DNA of 62,022 nucleotides from Virgibacillus sp. AGTR (lineage in GTDB: Bacteria > Bacillota > Bacilli > Bacillales > Amphibacillaceae), in NCBI RefSeq assembly GCF_016919725.2, contig NZ_JAJERH010000015.1, positions 1 through 62,022 of the forward strand. The letters are read 5' to 3'. This document shows, in pieces, positions 4,437 to 46,547 of the stretch. The notes under the pieces are model-generated. The model did not search any database and was not told where the DNA came from. It worked only from the letters and a program-made list of their open reading frames with translations. A program made the translations under genes and the position numbers. Within the stretch, counting starts at the first letter, position 1; each line of letters opens with the position of its first letter.

Positions 4437-4621
4437 ATAAAGGGAAACTTCAATTAATGGGATTTTGTCTATCCCTCACTGATTGTTAATAACATAAGGG
4501 TATAACCTAAAGGCCCTTGAACCAATCGGACATTTACTGGCAGTTGATCCTCCCCTCACCAATATTGGTTTCGCTTTATTACTTGAAGTGGGATCTTACT
4601 GCCAGTTACATGCGGGGTAAA
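4437..4621 (+). repeat. Structured 185-bp repeat (ATAAA-bounded, bcr1-like), copy 1
   Basis: Starts ATAAAGGGAAAC and ends GGGGTAAA. It contains the family core TATAACCTAAAGGCCCTTG and AACCAATCGGACA, and the paired arms ACTGGCAGT and ACTGCCAGT. It lies between the binding-protein gene and the permease genes of a leftward operon, so it is antisense within that transcript. The first hairpin of this copy has several mismatches. Confidence 0.9.
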
Positions 4622-4660
4622 CTATTTCTTACATCCATTTCTCATGATGGATTCATCTAA

Positions 4661-4693
4661 TAAAAACGGTAAGAAATCAAACAAGCTTACCGT
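4661..4693 (-). terminator. Terminator or attenuator hairpin after the sugar-binding protein gene
   Basis: On the minus strand, ACGGTAAG and CTTACCGT form an 8-bp stem with a 12-base loop, followed by TTTTTATT. It sits about 50 bases past the binding-protein stop and before the permeases. Such a partial terminator would give more binding protein than permease, the usual ratio for ABC importers. Confidence 0.75.
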
Positions 4694-4743
4694 TCTATTA
4701 TCATCAACTAATAAGCGATCAGAACCCCCTATATAGCTTTGGA

Positions 4744-6093
4744 TTAGTTCATAGCCGGTCTTAGCTTATCACTTACTTCTTCCATTTCGGCTTGCCACTC
4801 TTCGAAAGAAGTTTCACCACTCATTACACTGTCAATTGTTCCGTACAGTGTATCCCCCATGCTCGCTCCTGGTACAGGTTCTGTAGAAGCAAATGTCCCC
4901 ATTGCTGGAAGCGCTCCTTCCTCTTCATAAATGCTATAAAATGTTTGTTTCTGTCCCTCTAGCTTTTTCGTAATACCATTAATTGGTTGTACTGCACCAG
5001 CATCAAGGAAGATAGATGCTGCTTCATCAGAATACATATATGCTATAAATTCCTTCGCTTCATCCTTATGTTTAGCTGCAGCTGGAATCCAAATTTGTTC
5101 AAAGAATGTGAATGCATAACGATCACCACTTTTCTCAAATGCGGGTATAGATGTCATCCCCCATTGGAAATTTTTTGAACGTGGAGCTTCTTTCATTTCA
5201 TCTACAACCCAATTACCGTTCGGCATAAATAATGCTTTGTTATCTAGGATGAATTGCTGGTTTTTTGTGAAATCATTCGGATTTGCATTTGCAACAGTGT
5301 CCGAATGCGTATACTCTGCTAATTTTTCTATCGTTTGTAATACTTGAGATGCCTCTTCTGTTTCCCAAATTCCGTCCTCATAAGTCATTGCAGCATTGTA
5401 AAACTCCGGACCACCTGCAGCATAAAGCATGGAGCCAACTAAAGTATCAAAATACCCTGTTGTAGGATACGTAAACAAAGAGATACCTTCTTTTTTCGCT
5501 TTTTCACCTAGCTCCCACATTTCATCCCATGTTTCAGGAACTTTCCAGCCTTTTTCTTCAAATAGTCCAGCATTAAAGAATAATCCAGTTGGACTATAGA
5601 ACATTGGAGCTAGATAGGTCTCACCATTAGCATATGGATTAGTTGCAAGCGTATCGGTAAATCCATCTAAAAGTTTTTTATTAACTGTCACTTTTTCGGT
5701 TGGTATGTTCATATTCAATACATCGCTTATATTTTCTAGACCATTTTCTTTAATTAATGTTTCCGTCAATGCCTCTGGTCTATTGGTAGCCAGTAATAAT
5801 ACGTCTGGATACTCACCTGCCTGCATATTAGGTCGAATTACTTCCTCTAGATTCTTTTCAATTGTTAATTCAATATTAATATTTTTATTAGCTGCCTCAT
5901 ACGATTCAGCAATCTGGTCCCACATTTCAGTTCCATAAGCTGACTCTAAGGCAGCAACATGTAAGGTTGTTTCTTTGCCACCTCCACTCTCCTCTGATTC
6001 CTTTGAATTAACATCCTCTCCTCCTGAGCAAGCCGCTAAGATAAGTCCTACAAATAGAAAAGAGATTAATATTATCGATTTCTTGTTTTTCAC
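4744..6093 (-). CDS. Extracellular sugar-binding lipoprotein of ABC importer
   Basis: A 449-residue solute-binding protein (SBP_bac_1 type). It has a lipoprotein signal peptide: a KNKK start, a hydrophobic core and the lipobox LAAC with Cys22, so it is anchored on the outer face of the membrane. After a Ser/Gly/Glu-rich linker, the mature domain has typical sugar-binding features such as GWKVPETWDEMWELGEKAKK and LFMPNGNWVVDEM. It delivers substrate to the two permeases downstream and, by context, the disaccharide cleaved by the GH112 phosphorylase. It is the first gene of the operon, and a cre-like site lies about 50 bases upstream. The AraC regulator is transcribed in the opposite direction from the same gap. 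Confidence 0.93.
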   Translation of the reverse strand: MKNKKSIILISFLFVGLILAACSGGEDVNSKESEESGGGKETTLHVAALESAYGTEMWDQIAESYEAANKNINIELTIEKNLEEVIRPNMQAGEYPDVLLLATNRPEALTETLIKENGLENISDVLNMNIPTEKVTVNKKLLDGFTDTLATNPYANGETYLAPMFYSPTGLFFNAGLFEEKGWKVPETWDEMWELGEKAKKEGISLFTYPTTGYFDTLVGSMLYAAGGPEFYNAAMTYEDGIWETEEASQVLQTIEKLAEYTHSDTVANANPNDFTKNQQFILDNKALFMPNGNWVVDEMKEAPRSKNFQWGMTSIPAFEKSGDRYAFTFFEQIWIPAAAKHKDEAKEFIAYMYSDEAASIFLDAGAVQPINGITKKLEGQKQTFYSIYEEEGALPAMGTFASTEPVPGASMGDTLYGTIDSVMSGETSFEEWQAEMEEVSDKLRPAMN

Positions 6094-6143
6094 GATACGT
6101 AAACCCCCTTATTTAATAATAATATATCTTTATCGTACCTATA

Positions 6144-6157
6144 TTAAAACGCTTACA
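6144..6157 (-). promoter_or_regulatory. cre-like CcpA site upstream of the sugar ABC operon
   Basis: On the minus strand the site reads TGTAAGCGTTTTAA, which agrees with the Bacillus cre consensus TGWAANCGNTNWCA except near its 3' end. It lies in the divergent gap between the binding-protein gene and the AraC gene, where catabolite repression of the operon would be expected. Function is inferred. Confidence 0.5.
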
Positions 6158-6261
6158 CAATCAACATCTTGTTGACTTTTTTATAAATATTGCTTTTTAA
6201 GCTTTACTCCTATAAAATTAATAATTGATAGAAATTTCAAATAATAGTAAGGGGTGGAGCA

Positions 6262-7107
6262 ATGTCCTACGAAGTTTATAAAGTGAAGGAATTTGCTACA
6301 AGAAATGTGCCATTTAAATTACTTTATATCACACATTCAGAATACGACCGAGGCTGGCATAGTACAAAGCACACCCATCACTTTACAGAATTATTTTATA
6401 TCGTTAAAGGTAAAGGATCATTTCTGCTTTCCAATCATGAAATTCCAGTTAAAGAAAATGATTTAGTAATAATAAATCCAAATGTTGAACATACCGAAAA
6501 ATCCAATCTGTACGACTCACTTGAATATATTGCTCTAGGAATTGAAGGACTAACCTTTGCTCATGTTAAAGAAAATAGTTCGCAAATGGGCTTATATACT
6601 TATCAGGGCGATCGTGAGAATATTCTCTTCTACCTGCATAGTTTACTTAACGAAGTGCAGCAAGGGAATGAAGAGTATGAAGTTATCTGCCAAAATATCA
6701 TTGAAATCTTGATGGTAAAGCTTCGAAGAGGCAAAATGTTAGAAATTCAAAAAACAGAACCCAAAAATATCAACAAAGCCGCCGCATTTATTATGTACTA
6801 TATAAATCAGAATTACAGAGAACCAATCACCCTTGATACATTGGCAGAAATCGGGCATATCAATAAATATTATTTGGCACATACATTTAAAAAAGATATG
6901 GGAATATCACCAATTGAATATCTAAATCAAGTACGAATACGAGAAGCAAAAATACTATTAGATACAACAGACTATCACATTGGTAATATTGCTGAATTCA
7001 CCGGCTTCTCTTCTCAATCGTTTTTCACACAAGCATTTAAACGGGCTACAAATCAAACACCATCCGCTTATCGTAGACAGAGGAAAGAAACGTTGGTCGT
7101 TAAATAG
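6262..7107 (+). CDS. AraC-family regulator with N-terminal cupin
   Basis: A 281-residue cytoplasmic transcription factor. Residues about 25-95 form a cupin-like effector domain (KHTHHFTELFYIVKGKGSF, then HEIPVKENDLVIINPNVEH). Residues about 175-275 carry two helix-turn-helix units typical of AraC proteins (LDTLAEIGHINKYYLAHTF; IAEFTGFSSQSFFTQAFKR). It is divergent from the ABC/GH112 operon with a 168-base shared control region, so it probably activates that operon in response to the imported sugar. A TTGACT box is present upstream at 6172, but its -10 partner is poor. The ribosome site is GGGGTGG. Length and order match the AraC sugar activators. Confidence 0.9.
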   Translation: MSYEVYKVKEFATRNVPFKLLYITHSEYDRGWHSTKHTHHFTELFYIVKGKGSFLLSNHEIPVKENDLVIINPNVEHTEKSNLYDSLEYIALGIEGLTFAHVKENSSQMGLYTYQGDRENILFYLHSLLNEVQQGNEEYEVICQNIIEILMVKLRRGKMLEIQKTEPKNINKAAAFIMYYINQNYREPITLDTLAEIGHINKYYLAHTFKKDMGISPIEYLNQVRIREAKILLDTTDYHIGNIAEFTGFSSQSFFTQAFKRATNQTPSAYRRQRKETLVVK

Positions 7108-7244
7108 CAAGCAAAATATCAGGTGATCTGTAATACGAATATTTGGATTCACTAAAATGGAAGCTTTTATTCTAATTAAGGAGTTATTGCATATACTTGA
7201 AAGGGTGTATCATCACTTTAGGTTTATGGGGAGGTAATGTTGCT

Positions 7245-7703
7245 TTGCCAAGCAGTATTTGTGAACGAAAGGTAGATATTCCTATTGAAGAAATATGGGA
7301 CTTTGTTAACGATATCAATAATTGGGCTAGTCTCGTTCCAGGATATCAGCAACATACGATGGTAAATGCTAAACAATCGATTTGGATATGCAAAGGAGAT
7401 ATTGGCTTTATGGAAAAAAGTGTTCGATTATCATTATCCGTCACGGAATGGCAAAGTCCGAATAAAATAGCATTCACTTTAGCTAGTACGAACAACCATG
7501 TCAAAGGAAGCGGCTATTTTCAAGCCCATAAACTAGCAGAAAATCAAACGAAAATGACAGGTTCACTCTCTATAACAGCTAAGGGCATTGCTGGTTCGAT
7601 GATTAACTCTTGCTTAAGACCATTTTTATCCAAAGTAACGGCTGATTTCACAGATAATGTCATCGAACATATTCAGACAAGAAGGTCCGCGGTTATGCAA
7701 TAA
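7245..7703 (+). CDS. SRPBCC/CoxG-like carrier-domain protein
   Basis: About 152 residues forming one START/SRPBCC fold, the hydrophobic-pocket family that includes CoxG (carbon monoxide dehydrogenase subunit G-like) proteins. Typical features are ICERKVDIPIEEIWDFVND at the start, LVPGY near residue 33, and GSGYFQAHK and GSLSITAKG in the second half. The open frame extends back to a TTG at 7197. The TTG at 7245 is preferred because GGGGAGG lies 10 bases before it and homologues begin MPS. No neighbour suggests a substrate, so the role is unknown; it probably binds a small lipophilic ligand. It is followed by a 600-base gap. Confidence 0.75.
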   Translation: MPSSICERKVDIPIEEIWDFVNDINNWASLVPGYQQHTMVNAKQSIWICKGDIGFMEKSVRLSLSVTEWQSPNKIAFTLASTNNHVKGSGYFQAHKLAENQTKMTGSLSITAKGIAGSMINSCLRPFLSKVTADFTDNVIEHIQTRRSAVMQ

Positions 7704-8030
7704 TAGTTATTATTCCACTGCTTTTTATCGTGAGCTTGCAGGAGTTTAGATTTACGAACGGGCGATGAAAAGTATACCCGAATTCCGTCAAAGACTGGGA
7801 ATCGCTAAAGAACAGTAGAGAAGCAGGAAGCCTTCTCAAAAATGATCTAGGCATTTTCTTCGTGCCATGTCTAGCAGAGCGGTCTTCCTCGCCCTGCTGG
7901 AAAAGCAATAGCGAAACTCCGTGAGAAGCCATGTTTGTTCTAAACGTGTATATCCACTTTTACCAGGGGTGAAAAATAATTAAAACTTTGTTAAATATGT
8001 AAAAGAAATTTCCAACGTGAGAGTACTCCT
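7704..8030. other. Gene-free stretch, unrecognised
   Basis: No convincing gene or hairpin terminator. The part from 7725 to 7940 is locally richer in G+C than its surroundings and has the look of a degenerate dispersed repeat, but no second copy was found in this window. The open frame on the minus strand across it lacks a ribosome site and any recognisable protein features. Confidence 0.4.
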
Positions 8031-8219
8031 ATAAAGCGAAAGCTTCAATAAGTTTGAGGGTTTTGTTTATCCCCACGGATGGTTAGTACTACAAAGGGAT
8101 GACCTAAAGGCCTTTGAACCAATTGGACTTTACTGGCAGTTAATCTCCCACTTACCAATAGTACTTTCACTTTATTGCTTGAATTGGTTGGTATTACCGC
8201 CAATTAAAGGTGGGATAAA
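8031..8219 (+). repeat. Structured 185-bp repeat, copy 2
   Basis: Bounded by exact ATAAA at both ends (8031-8035 and 8215-8219). It contains GGGATGACCTAAAGGCC and AACCAATTGGAC. It is the most diverged full-length copy: the loop sequence that could pair with AACCAAT is lost, and the arm ACTGCCAGT has become ACCGCCAAT. It lies between two rightward genes, upstream of the YitT gene. Confidence 0.9.
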
Positions 8220-8316
8220 TACTTAACAGACTTTTTTCTATGTCAAAGTTCGACAGTATAGATCCTTCATGATAGAATAAATCCGTTACTAGGCTATCAG
8301 GAAAGGATCTTTTGTT

Positions 8317-9189
8317 ATGTCAGGAATTACAAAACACATAAATAAAACCGTATTATCTTATGCGCAAATTATTTTTGGAGCTACACTTGTTGCTCTATCC
8401 TATAATTTATTTTTGCTACCCTCAAAGTTAGCTGCAGGTGGTATTTCTGGGATTAGCACAATTCTCTTTGAAATGTATTCCTTAAGCCCAGCTTATACGC
8501 AGCTTCTAATAAATATCCCTATCTTTATTATCGGCTGGCTAACACTTGGAAAAGATTTCAGTTGGAAGACATTAGTAGGAACATTTTGGGTACCGTTTAT
8601 GATATGGGCAAGTGCTAATATTCCGTATACGATAACAAACCCAATTCTAGGAGCTATCTATGGAGGAATTATTCTCGGAATAGGTCTAGGCATTGTTTAT
8701 AAAGGTAATGGTTCTACTGGGGGTACAGCAGCAATTGCTCAAATTGTAAAGAAATTCACAGGCCTATCAAGCGGTTATTCACAACTCATTGTTGACGGTT
8801 TTGTTGTTATCTCATCCATTATTGTATTTAACCTAGAATTAACCCTATTTGCGCTCATGTGTATTTACATTACAAGCAAAACGATCGATATTGTGCAGCT
8901 ACAAACTTCAGCTACCAAACTAATATTAATTATTACGGAAAAAGAGCAACATATTCAGTCACTAATCCGTGACGAAATTGATCGTGGGTTGACAAAGGTT
9001 CGTTCAGTTGGAGGGTATTCACATAGCGATAAAACAATGATACTTTGTGTAGCTGAACAACAAGAAGCCTTTCATTTAAAGAAAATTTTACAAAGAGACG
9101 AACCGGATTCCTTTGTCATCTTTATTAATGCATCGGAGATTTTAGGTAGAGGCTTTTCTTTGGATAAGTATTATGGTCAAAAGCTTTAA
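8317..9189 (+). CDS. YitT-family membrane protein (DUF161 + DUF2179)
   Basis: A 290-residue membrane protein with five to six helices over residues 1-200 and a soluble C-terminal DUF2179 domain (ILIITEKEQHIQSLIRDEIDRG onward; GGYSHSDKTMILCV). Diagnostic motifs are LLPSKLAAGGISGISTI and KGNGSTGGTAAIAQI. The family is widespread in Firmicutes and often annotated as a putative transporter; its substrate is not known. The gene stands alone, with AAAGGA about 8 bases before the ATG, between two copies of the structured repeat. Confidence 0.9.
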   Translation: MSGITKHINKTVLSYAQIIFGATLVALSYNLFLLPSKLAAGGISGISTILFEMYSLSPAYTQLLINIPIFIIGWLTLGKDFSWKTLVGTFWVPFMIWASANIPYTITNPILGAIYGGIILGIGLGIVYKGNGSTGGTAAIAQIVKKFTGLSSGYSQLIVDGFVVISSIIVFNLELTLFALMCIYITSKTIDIVQLQTSATKLILIITEKEQHIQSLIRDEIDRGLTKVRSVGGYSHSDKTMILCVAEQQEAFHLKKILQRDEPDSFVIFINASEILGRGFSLDKYYGQKL

Positions 9190-9321
9190 CGATACCTTCA
9201 ATAAAGGAATCATGATAAATCTTCAGGTTGTCAAAACGTCTCGATGGCCAGCTTCTATTTAAATTACAGGGATTACATGTTACTATCAAAAAAGACATCG
9301 TATAAAATGTAACATGTAACG

Positions 9322-9507
9322 ATAAAGTGAAACTTCAATCGGTTGAGGGTTTTGATTATCTCCACGGATGGTTAATACCACAAGAGGATGACCTAAAGGC
9401 CTTTGAACCAATCGAACATATACTGGCAGCTATCCTCCTACCACCAACATTCGTTTCACTTTACTGCTTGAAATGGAGGTCTTACTGCCATTTATAGGTG
9501 GGATAAA
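9322..9507 (+). repeat. Structured 185-bp repeat, copy 3
   Basis: Bounded by exact ATAAA (9322-9326 and 9503-9507). It starts ATAAAGTGAAACTTCAATC and holds ATGACCTAAAGGCC, GAACCAATC and a GTTTCACTTTA segment complementary to the 5' end. It lies downstream of the YitT gene in gene-free DNA. Confidence 0.9.
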
Positions 9508-9585
9508 AGAAATTACAGCAAAAGAAACACTTACTTATTGAGCTTAACCACTACATCAATTTTTCGTATAACCCTGAAAAAGCTT

Positions 9586-9815
9586 GAGGCTAGGACAAAA
9601 GAATCTTTAGGAACAAAAGTGCAAGCGCCCGATTTGAAACGTGTGACTGGAGCGAGTCAACGAACATAAAGGAATCATGGTGAGCTTGCGAGCCGATGAT
9701 GACTTAGATTAGAGCGATTTATGAAGTCGCCTCGTTTCTGGGTGCTTGTGCTGGACGACGCGGCTCAACACGCGTCTATTTATTCACATGGGCAAATTTT
9801 ATCATTTCCTAGACT
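9586..9815 (+). repeat. Dispersed repeat of the GAGGCTNGGACAAAA/A-module type
   Basis: Begins GAGGCTAGGACAAAAG, like the terminal repeat of the elements at 24407 and 56987, then continues with the A module also found at 1-190 and 56400-56556. It carries no terminal inverted repeat at its right end, so it looks truncated. It lies between the YitT gene and the end of the ilv-leu operon. Confidence 0.8.
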
Positions 9816-9820
9816 AAGAT

Positions 9821-9871
9821 AAAAAACCCAAACCTTATCTGAAATCATTTAGATAAAGTTTGGGTTTTTGT
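9821..9871. terminator. Bidirectional rho-independent terminator
   Basis: A strong hairpin: AAACCCAAAC plus TTATCT pairs with AGATAA plus GTTTGGGTTT around a 10-base loop, with A-runs on the left and T-runs on the right, so it works from either side. It lies 140 bases beyond the last gene of the leftward ilv-leu operon, which it probably ends. Confidence 0.85.
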
Positions 9872-10012
9872 TTTAGAGATAGATAGTTCATTCATCGCTT
9901 AGTCAAAATGCTTCGCTTTCCTGCGGGATCTTCAGCTCGTACTTTTGCCGCGGATTTTTTTCGAACAAGGAAAAAATCCCAGAATATATCTACCTCACCC
10001 AACGATTTATAA

Positions 10013-10972
10013 TTAAGAATTTACTAATACCGGATGGTGTAAACGATTGGCCAGCTGCTGAATGTTGGCCATTGCACCAATATCCATATTCCCACCACTA
10101 ACAATTAGCCCACAGTGTCGTGATTTGATTTGATTATTATGGGCAAACAATGCTGCTAATGTTGCTGCTCCCGCTCCTTCCATTAACGTCTTGTTACGCT
10201 CAAGCATATAGACAATTGCTGCAGCAATTTCTTCGTCCGAAACAGTCACAAGATCATCAACATACTTCTTAATAAGTGGCAAGGTTCGTTTACCAGGCTT
10301 TTTCACAGCAATTCCCTCTGCAATGGTATCCACCGATTTTAAATTTTGTATTCGATCTGAATGAAAACTATCATATATGGCAGCTGCCCCGCTAGCTTGC
10401 ACCCCAATAATTTTGATATTGCGATTCACATACTTAGCAGCGATTGCTATTCCACTTATTAAGCCTCCACCGCCGACTGGTACAAGAATGGTATCCATTC
10501 GATCTTCTTGCCTGAGCATTTCCATGGCGATAGTTCCTTGACCTGCCATTACATCATAATCATCAAAAGGATGAATATAAACCGACCCAGTCTGCATTTG
10601 TTTTTTTAATGAAGCTTCATATGCCTCCTGAAAGGTTTCTCCCGTTAGAACCACTTGAGCACCATAGTTGCGTGTTGCATTAACTTTGGCTAGAGGTGTT
10701 TTCTCCGCCATGTAAATGGTAGCCTTCGTTCCAAGTTTAGCCGCTGCATACGCAACGCCTTGCGCGTGATTCCCTGCTGACGCAGTAATAACTCCTCTTT
10801 TTAATTGTTCCTTTGTCAGTTGCATCAACTTAAACGTAGCTCCTCTAAACTTAAAGGCGCCCGTTTTCTGTTGATTCTCCATCTTGAAATAGACATGTTT
10901 ACCAACGAAATTATTTGTTGTTTGCGAAGTTAATAGTGGTGTCCGATGCACGATTGGAGTCAGTCGCTGCAT
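10013..10972 (-). CDS. ilvA: Threonine dehydratase (short form, no ACT domain)
   Basis: A 319-residue PLP enzyme that converts threonine to 2-oxobutanoate, the first step to isoleucine. The PLP lysine is in KTGAFKFRGA (Lys41), the phosphate-binding loop is VGGGGLISG, and SAGNHAQGVAYAA is the substrate loop. It ends after the catalytic domain and lacks the C-terminal ACT-like regulatory domain of biosynthetic IlvA, so feedback inhibition by isoleucine would be absent. Last gene of the ilv-leu operon, 75 bases after leuD. The ATG at 10972 leaves a short N-terminus. The same frame stays open upstream (TGEKVHTAM) towards GGAG at about 11024, but only a rare ATT or a frame-shifted GTG could start there, so the true start or an early frameshift is open. 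Confidence 0.88.
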   Translation of the reverse strand: MQRLTPIVHRTPLLTSQTTNNFVGKHVYFKMENQQKTGAFKFRGATFKLMQLTKEQLKRGVITASAGNHAQGVAYAAAKLGTKATIYMAEKTPLAKVNATRNYGAQVVLTGETFQEAYEASLKKQMQTGSVYIHPFDDYDVMAGQGTIAMEMLRQEDRMDTILVPVGGGGLISGIAIAAKYVNRNIKIIGVQASGAAAIYDSFHSDRIQNLKSVDTIAEGIAVKKPGKRTLPLIKKYVDDLVTVSDEEIAAAIVYMLERNKTLMEGAGAATLAALFAHNNQIKSRHCGLIVSGGNMDIGAMANIQQLANRLHHPVLVNS

Positions 10973-11047
10973 GGCGGTGTGAACCTTTTCACCTGTTAAG
11001 CAATTCCCAATTCCTTCACTCTCCTTGTATGTTTGCTCGTTGTATGA

Positions 11048-11629
11048 TCAATTATTGCTATTCTCATAGATTTCAATCTTTTCTTCATGCAGAAGCGTTA
11101 AGGCGATATCATCCCAACCATTTAATAGTTTCTCCTTATGATATGCGGGTATCTGGAAATGATATTCCTTATTTCCCTCAAATATTTTTTGATCTTCCAA
11201 ATCTATTGATAACGATAGATTCCCAATGTCTGCTTCTTCAAGCCATTGCTTTACCTGCTCTTCTTCTATCTTAATTAAGATAATTCCGTTCTTTAAAGCA
11301 TTATTATAAAATATATCTGCAAAGCTTGGAGCGATAATTACTCGAAAACCGTAGTCTAGCAATGCCCATGGAGCGTGCTCTCTAGAAGATCCACAACCAA
11401 AATTTTCTCCTGCCACTAAAATCGATGCATGTTGATAACGCTCCTTATTAAGACTAAAGTCTTGGCGTTTATTTCCTTCGTCATCAAATCGCCAATGATA
11501 GAATAAAAACTGACCGAATCCTGTGCGCTCAATTCGTTTTAAAAACTGCTTTGGAATAATTTGATCAGTATCAATATTTGTTCGATTCAATGGATACACA
11601 AGTCCTGTATGGTTTTTGATCGCTTTCAA
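11048..11629 (-). CDS. leuD: 3-isopropylmalate dehydratase small subunit
   Basis: A 193-residue swivel-domain subunit. With LeuC it isomerises 2-isopropylmalate to 3-isopropylmalate in leucine synthesis. Family marks are NRTNIDTDQIIPKQFLKRI at the N-terminus and AGENFGCGSSREHAPWAL, the substrate-binding loop, near residue 75. Normal length. It follows leuC by 12 bases in the leftward operon and precedes ilvA. Confidence 0.96.
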   Translation of the reverse strand: MKAIKNHTGLVYPLNRTNIDTDQIIPKQFLKRIERTGFGQFLFYHWRFDDEGNKRQDFSLNKERYQHASILVAGENFGCGSSREHAPWALLDYGFRVIIAPSFADIFYNNALKNGIILIKIEEEQVKQWLEEADIGNLSLSIDLEDQKIFEGNKEYHFQIPAYHKEKLLNGWDDIALTLLHEEKIEIYENSNN

Positions 11630-11641
11630 CTTTTTCCCTCC

Positions 11642-13051: not shown

Positions 13052-13065
13052 TTTACACCTCCATC

Positions 13066-14199: not shown

Positions 14200-16792
<2,593 letters not shown>

Positions 16793-19130: not shown

Positions 19131-19316
19131 ATAAAGTGAAACTTCAATCAGTAGGGGGTTTGTTTATCATCCACTGATTGTTAGTACACAAGGGTATGAC
19201 CTGAAGGCCCTTGAACCAATCGGATATTTACTGGCAGTTATTCCCCCTCTTATCCATATTGTCTTCACTTTGTTGCTTGAATTGGGGGGCTTATTGCCAG
19301 TTATATGCGGGATAAA
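19131..19316 (+). repeat. Structured 185-bp repeat, copy 4, inside the ilv leader
   Basis: Bounded by exact ATAAA (19131-19135 and 19312-19316). Its right end merges with the T-run of the T-box terminator, so the element sits between the T-box and ilvB and is transcribed in antisense within the ilv mRNA leader. The first hairpin is near-complete (CAATCAGT with ACTGATTG). Confidence 0.92.
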
Positions 19317-23339: not shown

Positions 23340-23524
23340 ATAAAGTGAAACTTCAATCCGTGGGGAGTTTGTTTATCCCACGAATTTGGTAAGTATCACA
23401 AAGGTATAACCTAAAGGCCCTAGAACCAATCGGACATTTACTGGCAGTTGATACCCACTCCCCAAAAATAAGTTCTCTTCATTGCTTGAAGTGGGGGCTA
23501 ACTGCCAGTTATATACGGGATAAA
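23340..23524 (+). repeat. Structured 185-bp repeat, copy 5
   Basis: Bounded by exact ATAAA (23340-23344 and 23520-23524). First hairpin CCGTGGG with CCCACG, where an A-T pair of other copies has become C-G. Almost identical to copy 6 at 24215, the two flanking the TmrB-like gene. Confidence 0.92.
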
Positions 23525-29891: not shown

Positions 29892-29945
29892 TTTATCCCA
29901 CATATAGCTAGCAGTAAAACCCCCACTGATTGAAATTTCATTAGG
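29892..29945 (-). repeat. Minimal remnant of the structured repeat (copy 10)
   Basis: On the minus strand it reads AATTTCAATCAGTGGGGG-like 5' sequence joined directly to ACTGCTAGCTATATGTGGG and a final ATAAA. The two ends of the 185-bp repeat are thus kept and about 130 bases in between are gone. It is the only copy in the opposite orientation. It lies between manR and manP. Confidence 0.7.
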
Positions 29946-34060: not shown

Positions 34061-34246
34061 ATAAAGTGAAACCTCAATCAGTGGGAGTTTTGTTTATCCC
34101 CCACAGGATGGTTAGTACCACAAGGGTATGACCTAAAGTCCTCTAAACCAATCGGACATTACTGGCAGTCGCTCCCCACTTATCCATATTGGTTTCACTT
34201 TTTCACTTGAAGTTTGGGGCTTACTGCCAGTTATATGAGGGATAAA
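34061..34246 (+). repeat. Structured 185-bp repeat, copy 8
   Basis: Bounded by exact ATAAA (34061-34065 and 34242-34246). Keeps AACCAAT and its loop partner ATTGGTT, and AAAGTGAAAC with GTTTCACTTT, so both proposed long-range pairings are intact. Lies between the GH1 gene and licR, antisense to them. Confidence 0.92.
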
Positions 34247-37374: not shown

Positions 37375-37388
37375 CTAAATCTCCTCCT

Positions 37389-37818: not shown

Positions 37819-37913
37819 TGTGATTGCATAGCACCTCACCAGCTGTTTACCTCCCTTAATATAAGGATAACCTCCGTGTTTTCACGAATTTTGGAACGAT
37901 ATTACGTTATGAA

Positions 37914-38320
37914 ATGGTTTTATGGACGTCTTGATCGCTTAAGAAGAGAACTAGAACGAAAAGGAAAAAGCGGTGCTTAAACATGGGTGATTATGATCGC
38001 ATGGAACATTGAATACACGTAAAAAAGGGGGGGAGCGATTCAAAGACTCATCCGAGCCAATGAAAATGTTAATTTCAATAGTGTTGCAGAGGAAGCAGGT
38101 GCAGCAAAAGCAACATTGTACAACAATCCTGAAATTCGTGAGAAAATTGGATTATTAAGGAAGCGGAACTCGCAAATGCCAACACCAAACAATTAAAACG
38201 AGTAATGAATGGAAGCAATAAAAATGCCATTATAGATTCACTAAACGGAAAATCGAGAAACTAGAAGATGATAACCAACAACTACAAAAGCAGTTAAATG
38301 TAGCTTATGGGAAGGTGTAA
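37914..38320 (+). pseudogene. Remnant of a Tn554-type transposition gene (TnpC/DUF6262-like)
   Basis: From ATG 37983 the frames give MGDYDRMEH, NTRKK, ERAIQRLIRANENVNFNSVAEEAG, AAKATLYNNPEIREKI, QLKRVMNGSNKNAIIDSL and KIEKLEDDNQQLQKQLNVAYGKV, ending at about 38317. These are consecutive parts of a DUF6262/TnpC-like protein interrupted by several frameshifts and stops. The stretch 37914-37980 (FYGRLDRLRRELERKGKSGA) may be the tail of the preceding TnpB-type recombinase. No other part of the transposon is left. It marks a former mobile element just before the AraC/SDR pair. Confidence 0.75.
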
Positions 38321-38739
38321 GTTCTACTTTTTTAAAACTATTTAGGTTGAAGTAACGATACCAACAAAACATTCTCATACTATTTCGCAAACAGGCCAGA
38401 TTGTAAATGATAGACATATTGAATACTGGATAAATTAATTTAATGCTAAGATCAATTTAAGCCCAAGATTATAGTGAGTGACTTTCTGATTGGGTAGGTA
38501 CAAATAACAAAAACACTAAAACATATTTAAACCGCTTAGGTAAATAGGATTATTTAGATGTCTTTTAATGGTACCTATTACTAACGGATTAATTCGACGT
38601 AGTTGGCTAGTAAAATGTCACCCTTTGCTAGTTACAATGCTAGATTGAATAGGTATTATAATATCTGTCCCGTTAACTAGGCAGAACACAATCACAAGCA
38701 AAACTAGTGAATGTTTAGATAGCTAAAGGAGGACCCATT
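38321..38739. other. Gene-free stretch, unrecognised
   Basis: No repeat of either family, no strong hairpin and no coding frame. It must contain the promoter of the AraC gene at 38740. It may be further decayed transposon DNA. Confidence 0.35.
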
Positions 38740-39753: not shown

Positions 39754-39881
39754 CTTTGTCTTAAAAGTAAATTTTTTAACACTATATTAAAAAAGAATAA
39801 CCTAATTATTACCCCAAAGTGTAGAAGCGCGTTTATTTTAACTTATTATCATAAAAGATAAATGAAATGGAGAAATGTATT

Positions 39882-40676
39882 ATGGATATGGGATTAAACA
39901 ATAAAACAGCTTTAGTTACAGGATCAACGAAAGGTATAGGTAAAGCAATTGCCATTGAACTTGCCAAAGAAGGTGTCAATGTGCTAATTAATGGACGAAA
40001 TTATGAAGAGGTAGAACGAATCGTAAATGAAATTAAATCGAATTTCCCGGCTACCTCTCCTCAAAATGCTACAGCCGATATTGTCGATATTCTACAAAGA
40101 GAAGCCTTATTTAAAAAATACCCCACTATTGATATTTTAGTTAACAATATGGGTATTTATGAGATTATGCAATATGAGGACATTGACGATGAAGCATGGG
40201 AAAAATACTTCCGTACTAATGTTCTTGCTGCAAATGGATTATCTAAGTTTTATTTACCTAAAATGTTAAAAAACGATTATGGTCGCATTATTTTTATTGC
40301 CAGTGAAGAAGCAATTATGCCTTCAGGACAAATGCCTCAGTATTGTATGACAAAATCCATGCTATTATCATTGTCAAAAAGCTTATCTAAATTAACAGTA
40401 GGAGCAGAAGTTACAGTTAATACAATCATGCCAGGACCAACACTCTCTGAAAATGTTCATCAAATAATTGAGGGTATATACTCTCATGCTGATATGACTT
40501 TTTCAGAAAAAGAGAAAGAATTTATGACTACAAACCTACCTCAATCTGAAATACAACGATTTATCAAGCCAATTGAAATAGGTAGATTAACTACATTTTT
40601 GTGTAGTCCTTATGCATCCGCATTTAAAGGTTCTCCAATCCGCATGGATGGGGGAATGGTACCGACTATTTTTTAG
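39882..40676 (+). CDS. Short-chain dehydrogenase/reductase
   Basis: A 264-residue NAD(P)-dependent Rossmann-fold oxidoreductase. Cofactor motif TGSTKGIGKAIA at residues 13-24, NNMG at about 90, and the catalytic Ser/Tyr/Lys in FIASEEAIMPSGQMPQYCMTK. C-terminal GGMVP is usual. The start at 39882 is chosen over an ATG at 39867 because GGAG lies 9 bases before it and overlaps the earlier codon. It follows the AraC gene by 128 bases in the same direction. Unlike the AraC gene its base use is AT-rich, so the two may not share an origin. Substrate unknown. Confidence 0.85.
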   Translation: MDMGLNNKTALVTGSTKGIGKAIAIELAKEGVNVLINGRNYEEVERIVNEIKSNFPATSPQNATADIVDILQREALFKKYPTIDILVNNMGIYEIMQYEDIDDEAWEKYFRTNVLAANGLSKFYLPKMLKNDYGRIIFIASEEAIMPSGQMPQYCMTKSMLLSLSKSLSKLTVGAEVTVNTIMPGPTLSENVHQIIEGIYSHADMTFSEKEKEFMTTNLPQSEIQRFIKPIEIGRLTTFLCSPYASAFKGSPIRMDGGMVPTIF

Positions 40677-40766
40677 TATTTTTCTATTTCAAATATTGTA
40701 TATAAGTTTAACAAAACGTAAAAGAATAGGATGCTCTAATACTATAGAAGGGCGCGATTGAAACAA

Positions 40767-40890
40767 AAGGAGGCTGAGGCCGCGACCGCGGAAAGCAAGT
40801 ATATTTTCACGGTGCGGCGATGATACTCCTATTGATAACATGATTATTCGTATGTTGAGTAAAGAAGTTGTGTTTCGTCCCAGCCTCCTT
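40767..40890 (+). repeat. MITE-like element, 124 bp, perfect 10-bp terminal inverted repeats
   Basis: AAGGAGGCTG (40767-40776) and CAGCCTCCTT (40881-40890) are exact inverted repeats. The inside shares CACGGTGCGGCGATGATACTCC and TATTGATAACATGATTATTCGTA, in reverse, with 56987-57120 and 61921-62022. Short form of the family, without the terminator hairpin. It lies just downstream of the broken protease gene. Confidence 0.85.
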
Positions 40891-40978
40891 ATTTTATAAA
40901 TTTTTCAATTTAGGTTTTGATAATCGTGGAACTGTTGAGACAGCTATTTCGATCGAATGGTTCCTAATTTTGGGCTAA

Positions 40979-42551
40979 TTATCTCATTAGTGCTGTTCGA
41001 TGATCATTTAAGAAAAACATTGATTTTTGCATTCCTAAGCTCGGAATTATCGAAGAAACAGCGTCATATGCGTTCACTAATCCATAACCATATCCATTAT
41101 TCGGTGAATTTGGAAATTCGTTATCAGTTAATGGTGTGGCAGTAGCTAGTAGAGCTTCTTCTATTTCATTAACAGTTAAGCTACTATCAGCTTGTTTCAT
41201 CAAAGCCACAACTGCTGAAACAGCAGGACCTGCCATTGATGTACCATTCCACCCGCCTTCATAACCATTGCCTGGAACACTAGAACGAATATTTACACCT
41301 GGTGCTGAAATATCGGGCATCATAAGGGGACGGACCTTGTAATGAAAAGCTTCCTAGCGAATCATTAGAATCGGTTGCACCAGTAGCAAATGACTCTGGA
41401 TAGTTTGCTGGTACCGCAATCGACTCTGGACCACCTGGATTATAGATCGACGTATTCCCTGCAGAGAATTCCGGGAATATTTCTGCTGCTCTCCAATTTC
41501 TTACAACGTCTCGATACCATTCATTAAGACCCGGACCACCTCCCCACGAATTATTTACAACATCGGGCGCCATATCAACGCGTGAATTTCCTTGTGCATC
41601 TGTAGGAGCTAAAACCCACTCCGCTGCTTCGAGAAGATCAGTATCGGTACCTCCACTTGCTGAAAAGGCTTTTACAGCGATCCAATTTGCTCCTGGAGCA
41701 ACACCTACTTGGTTTGAGCCATCTGGCTCACTACCTACCATTGTTCCAGTAACGTGTGTGCCATGACCTTGATCATCATAAGGAGCCGATTCCCCTGCTG
41801 TCGCATCAAACCAATTAAAATCATGATTCACTTCTCCGGAAGTATTATCATAGCCTCGATATTTTTCTTGTAGCGCTGGATGATCCCATTGAACACCTGT
41901 ATCTATACTAGCAACGGTTACACCTGATCCATCAAATCCCATATCCCATACTGTGGGGGCTCCAACACGTTCAACATTCCATTCGACATTCGCGATTTTT
42001 GAAGCAGGTGCTTCTGCATCTTTTGTAATTGTAGTAAACAATTGTCTTCTTTCATTTGGCAGTATCTTTTCTACCTCCGTAAAAGCTGCAAGCTTATTGG
42101 CAACTTTCTTCGTTGCTGTGACAGCCATTCCGTTTACAATATGATACGACTTAAATGTGTCTACATTTCCTTTTTCGACTTCTGCTTCAAGGAACTTCCT
42201 AACTTTCTGTTGAGAATTTAAGGATGTTTCCTTTAATTCTGTTAAAACGGCAGTTCGTTGGGTTAATTCAGCCTTCTTTGCAGATAACTGCGCTTTCTGA
42301 CTAGAGGCTTTCGCCCGTTCAGCTATTTTCATAGTATCTGCTTTTTCTTTAAATTTGACTAGGAAGGTTAACTTATCATCGCCCTTAAACTCTTTAATCA
42401 ACCGCTTACTGACTTTTTCTTTTACCATTTGGTTCGACATACCGTTCGACTCTGCATTCGTTACTCCAGGTACAATTAATGAAAATGTCAATAGTACTGT
42501 TGCGGCAAAGCTAAATGCTGTTCTCATTTGACGTCTACGTTTAGCTTTCAT
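40979..42551 (-). pseudogene. Subtilase (S8), bacillopeptidase F-like, frameshifted and truncated
   Basis: N-terminal part (42551-41330): signal peptide ending VTNAES, an I9-type propeptide, then the protease with Asp in VASIDTGVQWDHPAL and His in DDQGHGTHVTGTM. At SLQGPSPYD the frame is lost near 41325-41335. In another frame (41323-40979) it resumes as PDISAPGVNIRSSVPG and GTSMAGPAVSA with the catalytic Ser, then ends after NAYDAVSSIIPSLG. Bacillopeptidase F continues for several hundred more residues, absent here. So the gene carries both a frameshift and a 3' truncation and should give no active enzyme, unless programmed slippage occurs, for which no signal is seen. Start chosen from GGGAGG 7 bases before ATG 42551. 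Confidence 0.88.
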
Positions 42552-42587
42552 GACCATTCCTCCCATCAATTTTTGACACATTTCCAA

Positions 42588-42924
42588 TGCAGATAAGAAT
42601 CAAATCCATATAGAACACTTTGCCTCCTTTCTTCACTCATTTCGTTCTTATCTGACTATGATGCTTTTCTATCGTATCTAGGTTGTTACTCAATTATAGA
42701 AGATGAAAAAGGGAGAAATATGTCAAACAACGTCGAAAAAAATTCTCATTTTAAGATTGATAGATTAGTCATAAATTTTCTTAAAATATTTCTAGGTATT
42801 TTTAAATAGATTTGCATCATAGATATCCAAATAAAGCTAGCATATTATTTGATTTTAACGTAATTACAAATTTATATCTAAATAATAATAATTTTCTATT
42901 TTTTAAGAAAAATGATAAAATAAA
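42588..42924. other. AT-rich gene-free stretch upstream of the gabD leader
   Basis: Divergent region between the protease remnant and the dehydrogenase gene. Very AT-rich, no open frame, no repeats of either family. It should contain promoters for both neighbours. Confidence 0.4.
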
Positions 42925-43000
42925 CCTATACATCCTTCTTCATTTACCATTTCACTTTCTTAGCGAAAGAAAATAAAGACTTTGTAAGTAAATGTATAGG
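42925..43000 (+). promoter_or_regulatory. Large hairpin in the leader of the aldehyde dehydrogenase gene
   Basis: CCTATACAT (42925-42933) pairs exactly with ATGTATAGG (42992-43000). Inside, ACTTTCTT-agcg-AAAGAAAAT forms a second stem, and CATTTAC can pair with GTAAATG, which overlaps the outer arm, so two folds compete. An AT-rich run with several T follows. It lies about 100 bases before the start codon. It could be a terminator, an attenuator or an operator; the sequence does not decide. Confidence 0.5.
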
Positions 43001-43103
43001 ATTTATTATTTTAATTTATAGTTCATATGTTTTTATCGATGAATAACTAGGGAATATAATAAATATAATAGAACGTTATATTAATGAGCAAAGGAGTTTT
43101 ATA

Positions 43104-44498
43104 ATGGCTAACTCGATTATTGTTACAAACCCAGCTACTGGAGAAACTATTAAAGAAATTAAGAAACATAGCAAAGAAGAAATTCAAGCAGCGCTTAAAA
43201 AAGGACATGACTATTTCCCAAAATGGTCAAAGGTTAATGCCCATAAAAGAGCCGAATTATTAAATACGTGGGCGAAAAAAATTCGTGATGCCAAAGATGA
43301 CATTGCCGAGCTGATGACACTTGAAAATGGAAAACCATTAAAAGAATCCTCTGGTGAAGTAGAATATGCTGCAAGCTATATTGATTGGTACGCAGAAGAA
43401 GCAAAGCGAATATATGGTAGGACCATTCCAGCAAATACGGAGTCCAAACGCATTATTATTAGTAAACAACCCGTTGGTTTAGTCGCCGCGATCACTCCTT
43501 GGAATTTTCCAGCAGCCATGATGACTCGTAAAGCTGCGCCAGCACTTGCTGCAGGTTGTACATTCATTGTTAAGCCAGCCTCTGAAACACCATTGACTGG
43601 CATACGAATTATTGAATTAGCTCATGAAGCTGGCATCCCAGAAGAAGCAATTCAATACGTTTCTGGTTCTGGTAGTATAATTGGTGACCTATTTACCAAC
43701 AGCGACTATGTACGAAAAATAACATTTACTGGATCTACATCTGTTGGAAAAGAATTAATAAAAAACAGTGCCGATACAGTAAAGCATGTAACGATGGAGC
43801 TTGGTGGACATGCACCATTGATTGTAGCCAAGGATGCTGATATCGAGCTAGCAGCCAAACAAACAGTAGCTACGAAATTCCGTAATGCTGGTCAGACCTG
43901 TGTTTGTGCAAACAGAATCATTGTTCATGAAGATGTCGTTGACAAATTCGCTGAAAAGTTTGTTGCAGAAGTAAAGCAGCTTCAAGTAGGAAATGGATTA
44001 CATGAAGGTGTTGATATCGGCCCAATCATTAATCAAGGTGGCTATGAAAAAATCATTTCTCACATTACTGATGCCAAAGAAAAGGGTGCACAAGTACTGT
44101 TAGGAGATCAATTTGATGCAAATGACGACAAAGGATACTACTTTGTTCATCCAACTGTACTTAAAAATGTAACTGAAGAAATGGATATTATGCACGAAGA
44201 AACATTTGGTCCTGTTGCTCCAATAACCACGTTTACAGAAATAGATGAAGCTGTAGCGATGGCGAATCACACACCGTTTGGTCTTGCTGCCTACTTCTTT
44301 ACTAATGACTATCGCACTGGCACATATCTTCATGAACATTTAGACTATGGAATTATTGGCTGGAATGATGGTGGACCATCAGCGGCACATGCCCCATTTG
44401 GTGGAATGAAAGAGAGTGGACTAGGACGTGAAGGCGGCTTAGAAGGAATCGAACCTTATTTAGAAACTAAATACCTGTCTATTGGAAACTTAAATTAA
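43104..44498 (+). CDS. gabD: Succinate-semialdehyde dehydrogenase (NAD(P)+)
   Basis: A 464-residue aldehyde dehydrogenase. The Glu base is in [10 protein letters not shown] and the nucleophilic Cys in [11 protein letters not shown]. Cofactor motifs are [12 protein letters not shown] and [11 protein letters not shown]. The QTCVCANR second cysteine and the [14 protein letters not shown] end are characteristic of GabD-type enzymes. It oxidises succinate semialdehyde to succinate. No gabT or gabP lies nearby, so it may serve other semialdehydes. Single gene with a structured leader and a terminator. AAAGGAG precedes the ATG. Confidence 0.92.
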
Positions 44499-44581
44499 AG
44501 CTTTCGCTTGAACAGCGCTTATCAATTATGTTGCTCCATCTGTAAAGCATCTCTAGATACTAGCTGATTCTCATTATATGT

Positions 44582-44626
44582 AAGGCTCTCTCACTTAGCA
44601 GCAGTTGCTAAACAGAAGAGAGCCTT
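44582..44626 (+). terminator. Rho-independent terminator of the aldehyde dehydrogenase gene
   Basis: AAGGCTCTCT and AGAGAGCCTT pair, with an inner TAGCA/TGCTA stem, followed by TTTGCTT. About 85 bases after the stop codon. Confidence 0.8.
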
Positions 44627-44923
44627 TGCTTATCTGATACACGTAAACAAGATAACGAAGGAATCATCCAAAGACTGAGAACCAACTGCAAATCTCTCTG
44701 ATTATTTGTTGTATCTATATTGATAACCCTTTTTAGATCGTGGAGATAACTTCCTCGCTCTAATAGCCTTGTGACATCAGAACAATTATGATGACTGTTT
44801 AATTTAGTCACTTCACCCCCCTATTTTCACTCAGAATATTTAGTTATTATAGCCGCTATTCTTTCCTTTTCCTTTCGATACCAACTTATAATACTATTAA
44901 GGTAAAGAAGGGGGACATGTTAC
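44627..44923. other. Gene-free stretch before the metallo-beta-lactamase-fold lipoprotein gene
   Basis: No supported gene. The minus-strand open frame at 44608-44811 has no ribosome site and begins inside the terminator. The end of the stretch has an AGAAGGGGGAC ribosome site for the next gene. Confidence 0.35.
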
Positions 44924-46003
44924 ATGAAGCGTCATTGGCTGTTTTTGATTATCATTGGATTATTTTGCTTCGTAACGGCTTGTGGTAAATCACCCACACA
45001 ATCAGATAGTGTTGCACACTCAACGTCTTCAAATGGGCAACTGGATGTTCATTACATAGATGCTGGCCAAGCAGATGCGACGCTATTTCGCTATTCAGAG
45101 GATCAACAAACCTATACGATTTTATATGACACTGGTGATTGGAAAAGTAATGATGTAAACGAATATTTAGCGTCCCAAGCTATTAATAACATTGATTTAA
45201 TCATTATTAGTCATCCAGATGCTGATCATATTGGACAATTAGCAGAAATCCTTCAAACATACGAAACAGAGGAAGTATGGATGAGTGGTAATGAAAGCTC
45301 TTCTCAAACCTTTCAAAAAGCTTTAGAAGCAGTAATTGATAGTGGCGCTAACTATGAAGAACCTCGAGTAGGAGAGCAGTTTGTAATCGGGCCATTGGAA
45401 ATCGACATCCTCTATCCTAAAGAAATCACAGGTGAAGCAAATAAAGAGTCTCTTTCCGTTCGATTATCATATGATCAAATGCGTTTTTTGTTTACAGGGG
45501 ATGCAGGTAAAGCAGAGGAAAGAGAAATGCTTACGATGAATGATTCGATCGATGCGGATTTTCTCCAGCTTGGGCACCACGGTTCCAATACATCTACCGC
45601 AACTGAATTTGTAGAAGCAGTTAATCCACAAGTAGCTATTTATAGTGCAGGAAAGGATAATAACTATGGACACCCACATAAAGAAACAATAAAAAAAATC
45701 AAAAATGCTGGAATTGACTTATATGGTACAGATAATGATGGTACCATTATCATAACTACAAATGGAACAGAATATCAAATTTCTACGGAAAAAGGGAAAG
45801 ATGAATGTATTGCCATTAACCAAGCTTCACATGATGACTTACAAAATATTATTCATATTGGCTCAGAGCGGGCAACTGCATTAATTGACTTACGACCGTA
45901 TCAATCACTAAATGATTTAACAAAGATAAAAGGTATCAGTACTGCAACATTAGATGATATAAAAGAACAAGGATTAGCCTGTATGAAAGGAGCCGACAAA
46001 TGA
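44924..46003 (+). CDS. Lipoprotein metallo-beta-lactamase-fold hydrolase with helix-hairpin-helix
   Basis: 359 residues. Lipoprotein signal (KRHWLFLIIIGLFCFVTAC, lipobox Cys20), so anchored outside the membrane. Residues about 40-275 are a ComEC/Rec2-like metallo-beta-lactamase domain: DVHYIDAGQADATL, SHPDADHIGQL with metal ligands, FTGDAGKAEE, LQLGHHGSNTST and NNYGHPHKE. Residues about 290-355 form a ComEA-like helix-hairpin-helix unit (INQASHDDLQNIIHIGSERATALIDL; LTKIKGISTATL). Such extracellular proteins may degrade DNA or phosphodiesters. It joins, in one chain, the two parts found separately in ComEC and ComEA. Its stop overlaps the DUF3006 gene by four bases. Confidence 0.9.
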   Translation: MKRHWLFLIIIGLFCFVTACGKSPTQSDSVAHSTSSNGQLDVHYIDAGQADATLFRYSEDQQTYTILYDTGDWKSNDVNEYLASQAINNIDLIIISHPDADHIGQLAEILQTYETEEVWMSGNESSSQTFQKALEAVIDSGANYEEPRVGEQFVIGPLEIDILYPKEITGEANKESLSVRLSYDQMRFLFTGDAGKAEEREMLTMNDSIDADFLQLGHHGSNTSTATEFVEAVNPQVAIYSAGKDNNYGHPHKETIKKIKNAGIDLYGTDNDGTIIITTNGTEYQISTEKGKDECIAINQASHDDLQNIIHIGSERATALIDLRPYQSLNDLTKIKGISTATLDDIKEQGLACMKGADK

Positions 46004-46260
46004 AAGGTGTCTTAGATCGCTTTGAAGATAATGAAAAAGCAGTCATCTTAGTGGAAGATAAACAAAAGGAAATTCTTATCGCTAAAAACCTGCTTCCAAA
46101 GGGAAGTGAAGTAGATACCTGTTTTGACATTACTGCTAAAGATGGAAAATATCAATTAGAAATAGACAAGGAATGTACAAAACACCAAGCAGAGAAGATA
46201 TCAGAGCGCTTGGGAAAACTTCGCCAACAAAGGTCAGATAGTAAATTTAGAAAGAAATAG
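46000..46260 (+). CDS. DUF3006 family protein
   Basis: 86 residues. The N-terminal MKGVLDRFEDNEKAVILVED and ILIAKNLLPKGSEVD match the DUF3006 pattern, a small beta-rich domain of unknown function. The C-terminus is charged and helical (ISERLGKLRQQRSDSKFRKK). The start overlaps the stop of the upstream metallo-beta-lactamase-fold gene (ATGA), so the two are translated as a unit. DUF3006 genes often sit beside ComEC-like hydrolases, as far as I recall, which supports a joint role. Confidence 0.85.
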   Translation: MKGVLDRFEDNEKAVILVEDKQKEILIAKNLLPKGSEVDTCFDITAKDGKYQLEIDKECTKHQAEKISERLGKLRQQRSDSKFRKK

Positions 46261-46267
46261 CGACCAC

Positions 46268-46298
46268 AAAAACAGGGATTTAAATTATCCCTGTTTTT
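46268..46298. terminator. Bidirectional rho-independent terminator
   Basis: AAAAACAGGGAT and ATCCCTGTTTTT form a 12-bp stem with a 7-base loop, 8 bases after the DUF3006 stop. A and T runs on both sides suit both directions. It also could stop the leftward NamZ transcript 260 bases away. Confidence 0.88.
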
Positions 46299-46364
46299 AC
46301 ATGCCAATATGTTATTTGTAGCAGTATTTTATGAATCAAAACAGAAGTATCTGCTACTCTATCT

Positions 46365-46547
46365 ATAAAGTGAAACTTTAGTAGGGATTTTGTTTATCCT
46401 CCACTGATTGTTCGTACCCCAAGGATATGACCTAACGGCCTTGGAACCAATCGGACATTTACTGGCAGTCGATCTCCTACTTATCCATATTGGTTTCACT
46501 TTATTCCTTAAAGTGGGAATCTTACTGCCAGTTATATGCATGATAGA
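46365..46547 (+). repeat. Structured 185-bp repeat, copy 9
   Basis: Left end exact ATAAA (46365-46369), right end ATAGA. Keeps AACCAAT with ATTGGTT, and AAAGTGAAAC with GTTTCACTTT. The first hairpin has lost its 5' arm in part. It lies in the convergent gap between the DUF3006 and NamZ-like genes. Confidence 0.9.

What the first reader, a model, noticed from the sequence alone, without database searches (positions are those of the whole stretch)
4437..46547. Family of 185-bp structured repeats: nine large copies and one remnant in 62 kb
Seen: copies at 4437, 8031, 9322, 19131, 23340, 24215, 27666, 34061 and 46365, plus a remnant at 29892. Each begins ATAAAGTGAAAC-like and ends GGGATAAA-like. 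Each holds a 5' hairpin (CAATCAGTGGGGG with its complement), a conserved core TGACCTAAAGGCCCTTGAACC, and a second long hairpin with arms ACTGGCAGT/ACTGCCAGT. Covarying pairs support real RNA or single-strand DNA folds: C-G to T-A in copy 7 and A-T to C-G in copies 5 and 6. From memory they resemble bcr1 of the Bacillus cereus group, described as a mobile element of about 155 bp with TTTAT repeats. If they are the same family, its range is wider than stated; if not, this is a new family.
Basis: partly seen in the sequence, partly recalled or inferred. Interest (0 to 1): 0.8.

Follow-up and report, generated by a model that had tools for sequence, protein, structure and literature searches.

The report
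Hairpin repeat that jumps as single-stranded DNA
The window holds nine copies of a small two-hairpin DNA element that is found, often in large numbers, in many Bacillus-like bacteria, and it nearly always points the same way relative to DNA replication, as expected of a parasite that hops as single-stranded DNA at the replication fork.

Summary
In detail: nine copies on the + strand at the stated coordinates, plus a 51-nt remnant on the other strand. The family is large: 150 copies listed in this genome (listing cap), present in 107 of 397 sampled genomes of the order and 29 of 299 of the class. Two hairpins (H1, H3) covary across genera. New: copies are oriented by replication (135 of 150 listed in a complete congeneric chromosome, Fisher p 3e-25), the TTTAT-bounded strand lying on the lagging-strand template. 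The two ATAAA ends differ: the 5' one is conserved (112 of 133), the 3' one varies more (85 of 133), and no copy has the same non-consensus pentamer at both ends. G·T is no commoner than A·C in the stems, so no RNA-like constraint is seen. Best reading: a non-autonomous element moving as folded single-stranded DNA, IS200/IS605-like, inserting at TTTAT; its enzyme was not found. Kinship with bcr1 is likely (size, TTTAT ends, a 158-nt homologue in a probable B. cereus-group context), but no named B. cereus sequence could be compared.

The parts
4437..4621 (+). full copy, 185 nt
   Evidence: CM 194 bits; repeat finder
8031..8219 (+). full copy, 189 nt
   Evidence: CM 157 bits
9322..9507 (+). full copy, 186 nt
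   Evidence: CM 168 bits
19131..19316 (+). full copy, 186 nt; absent at the orthologous site of 7 of 7 congeners
   Evidence: CM 200 bits; empty sites, no model match in those seven stretches
19131..19135 (+). 5' ATAAA (TTTAT on the other strand), read as the element's own end
   Evidence: 5' pentamer is ATAAA in 112 of 133 copies
19145..19180 (+). hairpin H1
   Evidence: cross-genus: 96.9% of cells paired, 11 of 12 pairs with double changes
   Evidence: absent from the short forms of other genera
19230..19301 (+). hairpin H3
   Evidence: cross-genus: 91.9% of cells paired, 17 of 20 pairs with double changes
19312..19316 (+). 3' ATAAA, read as the target pentamer
   Evidence: 3' pentamer is ATAAA in 85 of 133 copies, more variable than the 5' one; an ATAAA lies within a few bases of the site in 3 of 7 congeners
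23340..23524 (+). full copy, 185 nt
   Evidence: CM 173 bits
24215..24397 (+). full copy, 183 nt, 93% like the 23340 copy over 137 nt
   Evidence: CM 196 bits
27666..27820 (+). short-form copy, 155 nt
   Evidence: CM 146 bits
29892..29942 (-). remnant: both ends joined, middle missing, opposite strand
   Evidence: sequence read by eye
34061..34246 (+). full copy, 186 nt
   Evidence: CM 189 bits
46365..46547 (+). full copy, 183 nt
   Evidence: CM 183 bits

Best explanation
A non-autonomous mobile element that moves as folded single-stranded DNA. On its active strand it reads TTTAT|CCCGC-[hairpin H3]-CCCGATTGGTTCAACTAA-[hairpin H1]-AAGTTTCACTTTAT. A single-strand transposase, most likely a Y1 HUH enzyme as in IS200/IS605, would recognise the two subterminal hairpins, cut after the TTTAT on the left (which belongs to the target) and after the TTTAT on the right (which belongs to the element), and insert the strand after another TTTAT exposed on the lagging-strand template. 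Shown: the covarying hairpins, the TTTAT ends, a lineage-specific insertion, an orientation set by replication, and unequal ends. Inferred: the single-stranded intermediate, the enzyme class and the cut positions.
For: Replichore orientation in a complete congeneric chromosome (G005): 62 of 67 listed copies minus before the terminus, 73 of 83 plus after it, Fisher p 3e-25. Own genome: 118 of 122 listed copies on contigs with two or more follow the contig majority. A second genus: 66 of 73. The rule holds for 6 of 7 copies between two ORFs on the lagging strand and for 33 of 38 between two on the leading strand, and in all score thirds, 47, 41 and 47 of 50. The TTTAT strand is then on the lagging-strand template, where IS608 and ISDra2 insert (PMC6006769, passages). 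Unequal ends: 38 copies with only the 3' pentamer non-consensus, 11 with only the 5' one, 10 with both and none with the same variant at both. Empty site: element absent in 7 of 7 congeners, an ATAAA within a few bases in 3. H1 and H3 covary; G·T about equals A·C.
Against: No partner enzyme was found. Of 50 Y1 loci of relatives none was seen to be bounded by these ends (the motif scan covered 30 of the 50, and about half of the last 20 come from genomes with no listed element, so they say little). Y1 genes do not track the element well: one genome has 14 copies and no Y1 match, another 6 and none. All 7 Y1 matches of the own genome are broken or partial. The rule is weaker between ORFs of opposite strands: 16 of 22. 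The 3' pentamer could vary more for other reasons, such as decay of one end or the way the ends were located. No circle or cut was seen. The nested sister element is not a clean insertion.
Confidence: 0.6

Rival explanations
1. A MITE moved as double-stranded DNA by a DDE transposase that prefers ATAAA and duplicates it (5-bp target duplication).
For: ATAAA at both ends of most copies; tandem copies share one ATAAA; an ATAAA near the empty site in 3 of 7 congeners.
Against: 0 of 133 copies carry the same non-consensus pentamer at both ends, and the ends differ in variability; no terminal inverted repeats by eye; strong replication orientation, unusual for DDE elements other than fork-targeted ones such as Tn7 with TnsE (recalled).
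Confidence: 0.15
2. A structured RNA (regulator, or RNA-based mobile element) whose RNA form is what selection maintains.
For: Covarying hairpins; [quoted passage not shown] cereus (PMC3446304, passages); retro-elements can also favour the lagging-strand template (recalled).
Against: G·T and A·C equally frequent in the stems: 47 and 44 in A3, 171 and 188 in A4; the 19131 copy is absent in 7 of 7 congeners; no Rfam family above its gathering score. No reverse transcriptase was looked for and no transcript data were available.
Confidence: 0.13
3. Oriented functional motifs kept by selection, like chromosome-orientation or segregation sequences.
For: Orientation bias and high copy number.
Against: Bias does not grow from high- to low-scoring copies (47, 41, 47 of 50); position not conserved at the one site examined; tandem arrays and nesting; stem letters differ between genera while pairing is kept.
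Confidence: 0.07

Closest known systems
bcr1 (group A repeats of the Bacillus cereus group)
   Same: 147-167 nt, TTTAT motif, mobile, folded, high copy (PMC6542083 and PMC2267715, passages). A 158-nt homologue was found in contigs that are probably from the B. cereus group.
   Different: No bcr1 sequence was available for comparison.
IS200/IS605 insertion sequences (IS608, ISDra2) and their non-autonomous derivatives (PATEs)
   Same: Subterminal hairpins and lagging-strand-template orientation (PMC6006769, passages); a short fixed target beside the left end (recalled for IS608 and ISDra2).
   Different: No tnpA inside, and none found with these ends; about 157 nt; hairpins and linker vary and take inserts.
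REP/REPIN with TnpA-REP
   Same: Hairpin repeats in intergenic DNA linked to Y1 enzymes (PMC8266576, start of abstract in a listing).
   Different: Larger, asymmetric two-hairpin element; a copy in only 2 of 50 Y1 loci of relatives.
Bhal-1 and other stem-loop families (PMC2267715)
   Same: Interspersed stem-loop repeats in Bacillus relatives (passages).
   Different: 74 nt in that paper's table; sequences not compared.

Membership tests
bcr1 | Length about 147-167 nt | tested here: met
   General form mostly 148-164 nt in relatives, longer with inserts; 183-189 nt for 8 of 9 window copies because of the insert
bcr1 | TTTAT motif at the ends | tested here: met
   ATAAA at the 5' end in 112 and at the 3' end in 85 of 133 copies
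bcr1 | Sequence match to the bcr1 consensus | not testable with these tools
   Paper not held; no named B. cereus-group sequence reached
bcr1 | Restricted to the B. cereus group | tested here: not met
   Many other genera; this is a reported range, not a structural trait
IS200/IS605-type non-autonomous element | Subterminal hairpins | tested here: met
   H1 and H3
IS200/IS605-type non-autonomous element | Insertion beside a fixed short target, no target duplication | tested here: inconclusive
   Unequal pentamers and one orthologous site in an A-rich tract
IS200/IS605-type non-autonomous element | Lagging-strand-template orientation | tested here: met
IS200/IS605-type non-autonomous element | A Y1 transposase gene that carries the same ends | tested here: not met
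   None seen in 50 Y1 loci of relatives nor in the 7 broken or partial ones of the own genome; not every Y1 gene of these genomes was examined
Rfam RNA family | Match above gathering score | tested here: not met
   none in the window; one copy searched at lax threshold gave a single weak match, E 2.2

The most novel reading that the evidence does not exclude
A superfamily of single-stranded-DNA transposing hairpin elements, spanning much of the Bacilli and including bcr1, that is mobilised in trans by an enzyme not yet linked to any such element, possibly not of the Y1 class, with a linker between the two hairpins that can take up other hairpins or a whole sister element.
Probability: 0.3. Interest if true: 0.78.

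Novelty: new variant of a known kind. Interest (0 to 1): 0.62.

Why it matters
[quoted passage not shown] Replication orientation and unequal ends give a concrete, testable mechanism instead, extend the family (if bcr1 belongs) from one species group to many genera, and suggest that hundreds of hairpins in these chromosomes point with replication because of how they insert, not because of gene direction.

Tried and rejected
RNAalifold on the plain MAFFT alignment found only 5 pairs because stems were misaligned; a named structure and a CM alignment were used instead. Y1 transposases as bearers of the same ends: none seen. Y1 co-occurrence with the element: no clean link. A long version with a gene between the ends: a motif scan of 2.05 Mb of fetched DNA listed three far pairs; on reading, each was two separate copies with no transposase gene between. 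Phage records: no match with one short-form query. Exact orthologous sites: matched pieces of congeners are only 66-82% identical, so one site was worked out. A B. cereus-group genome sought by a 16S piece: none among 397 order genomes or 7 chosen ones. A hit on a 'Klebsiella' plasmid lies in Bacillus-like DNA. Strand from wobble pairs: no preference either way.
Full report
Observation. Eight copies are 183-189 nt, one (27666) is 155 nt. All nine are on the + strand; the remnant (29892-29942) is on the minus strand. A covariance model (R1) was built from 34 own-genome copies, the nine of the window among them. It finds 150 copies in the genome, which is the listing cap. The window has nine in 62 kb, so the true number is probably several hundred (inference). 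No Rfam family reaches its gathering score in the window; one copy searched at a lax threshold gave a single weak match, E 2.2.

Host. Two relatives with the same family code have contigs of the same lengths as named records: 875,389 bases (Oceanobacillus manasiensis) and 172,976 bases (Terrihalobacillus insolitus), so the host is a Bacillaceae relative of these (inference).

Anatomy. The consensus runs ATAAAGTGAAACTT, hairpin H1 (CAATCAGTGGGGG/CCCCCACTGATTG), a linker, hairpin H3 (ACTGGCAGT...ACTGCCAGT with an inner GATCCCCCACTT/AAGTGGGGGTC), TATATGCGGG, ATAAA. In other genera the linker is mostly TTAGTTGAACCAATCGGGCTTTT or close to it, and the element about 157 nt. The linker or H1 also carries other inserts (L107, L134, L167, L199). 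In four loci (L143, L145, L188, L193; 261-268 nt) the linker holds a smaller sister element of about 114 nt on the opposite strand, with the same unpaired motifs but different hairpins. Its left neighbour is TTAGT in all four, its right end TTTAT in one and TGTAT in three. That is not a matched duplication; but the letters beside it differ from the form without insert, and the four may stem from one event, so I give it little weight.

Structure. On the cross-genus CM alignment A3 (69 matches, 68 distinct rows, from 57 of the fetched loci) 93.2% of cells pair, 32 of 38 pairs show changes on both sides, and the covariation score is 0.231 against 0.082 for shuffles and at most 0.062 when slid. 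H1 and H3 carry this; the pairing inside the insert is not supported. The alignment was fitted to the structure, which favours it. A near-consensus copy (L156, Sporosarcina) folds as DNA with z -8.2, the decayed window copy 34061 with z -1.9. In H1 and H3 G·T and A·C cells are about equally frequent: 47 and 44 in A3, 171 and 188 in A4. An RNA under selection should tolerate G-U better than A-C, so this speaks against RNA-level constraint.

Orientation. On own contigs with two or more of the 150 listed copies, 118 of 122 have the contig's majority orientation; 30 of 33 such contigs are uniform, against a random mean of 9.8 and a maximum of 20 in 20,000 draws. In congener G005, a complete 4.76-Mb chromosome, GC skew is positive in the first stretch and negative in the last, and changes sign between 1.695 and 1.93 Mb (30 stretches); dnaA was not checked. 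With the terminus set at 1.88 Mb (any point from 1.82 to 1.94 Mb gives the same counts), 62 of 67 listed copies are minus on one side and 73 of 83 plus on the other, p 3e-25. In G017, another genus of the family, 66 of 73 copies on contigs with two or more follow the contig majority (random mean 45, maximum 57 in 20,000 draws; 76 of 115 matches were listed); on contig C1 the sign switches once. In G005 the share following the rule is 47, 41 and 47 of 50 from the highest- to the lowest-scoring third. Of 76 copies in the fetched stretches none lay inside a called ORF, and 67 had an ORF of 100 codons or more on both sides: 33 of 38 follow replication between two leading-strand ORFs, 6 of 7 between two lagging-strand ORFs, 16 of 22 between ORFs of opposite strands. 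The strand that reads TTTAT...TTTAT is then on the lagging-strand template.

Ends. Of 210 matches the best 150 were aligned; 133 distinct ones with both ends readable were kept, 17 dropped as duplicates or without a clear anchor. The 5' pentamer is ATAAA in 112, the 3' one in 85. Only the 3' one departs in 38, only the 5' one in 11, both in 10, and never to the same pentamer. A duplicated target should give matched variants. Tandem copies share one ATAAA (for example). At the orthologous site of the 19131 copy the element is absent in all seven congeners: five were aligned, two read unaligned, and the model finds nothing in the seven stretches. An ATAAA lies within a few bases of the site in G004, G002 and G001; the tract is A-rich and the alignment loose.

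Range. R1 finds the element in 32 of 61 relatives at E 0.001, in 107 of 397 genomes of the order (53 of 136 genera) and 29 of 299 of the class, own genome included each time and with overlap between samples. These searches used stricter filters and a model of one genus, so they are lower bounds. A Pseudalkalibacillus plasmid carries two copies scoring 107-108 bits.

bcr1. The held papers describe bcr1 as 147-167 nt with TTTAT motifs, mobile, specific to the B. cereus group, and found in transcripts (passages only). No bcr1 sequence was in what I read. In IMG/VR 11 contigs carry the 5' end. Nine of them show one and the same locus. In L310 a gene of the heterocycloanthracin/sonorensin family lies close by (TIGR03601, 120 bits), which I recall as typical of the B. 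cereus group; L309 has a similar ORF, not tested. The intact version (L309, L314) is 158 nt and scores 97 bits; the versions of L310, L311 and L312 are 100 nt. I take this as a probable bcr1 copy, not as proof.

Enzyme. All seven Y1 (PF01797) matches of the own genome are broken or partial. Among relatives 52 of 61 have a Y1 match, but element and Y1 do not track closely: G021 has 14 copies and G004 6, both without a Y1 match. In 50 Y1 loci of relatives no bounding ends were seen; a copy lies in two of them, L282 and L289. The motif scan covered 30 of the 50, the model all 50. No long form with a gene between the ends was found in the fetched DNA. The enzyme remains unknown.

Conclusion. The best reading is a non-autonomous element moving as folded single-stranded DNA into TTTAT on the lagging-strand template. 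It works like IS200/IS605 elements; membership there is not shown. A search for papers holding bcr1, 'lagging strand' and Bacillus gave none, but the key bcr1 papers are not held, so this is weak evidence of newness.

Noticed in passing
L300, L305 (CP079755.1): The record 'Klebsiella grimontii plasmid pNY3A' carries Bacillus-like genes (Spo0E family phosphatase, DUF3992 protein) and a 92-nt version of this element; probably a mislabelled or contaminating Bacillus plasmid.
   Followed up: partly
L143, L145, L188, L193: Elements of 261-268 nt carry a smaller sister element, inverted, in the linker.
   Followed up: partly
L107, L134, L167, L199: Other hairpin-rich inserts in H1 or the linker; the element looks modular.
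   Followed up: no
window 40788-40886, 56997-57082, 61924-62022: A repeat of 86-99 nt, three copies, 93-94% alike, one at the very end of the contig.
   Followed up: no
window 1-135, 9627-9761, 56407-56468: Another repeat family, 69-85% alike.
   Followed up: no
L282, L289: A copy of the element lies 60-780 bases from a RAYT-like Y1 gene; 2 of 50 Y1 loci of relatives.
   Followed up: partly
L317: A copy about 100 bases upstream of a solitary tyrosine recombinase gene, with a collagen-like protein gene beyond it.
   Followed up: no
L301, L302 (Peribacillus asahii plasmids): Two plasmids share a 5' half of the element (H1 and linker start) without a recognisable 3' half at the same place between metabolic genes.
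   Followed up: no
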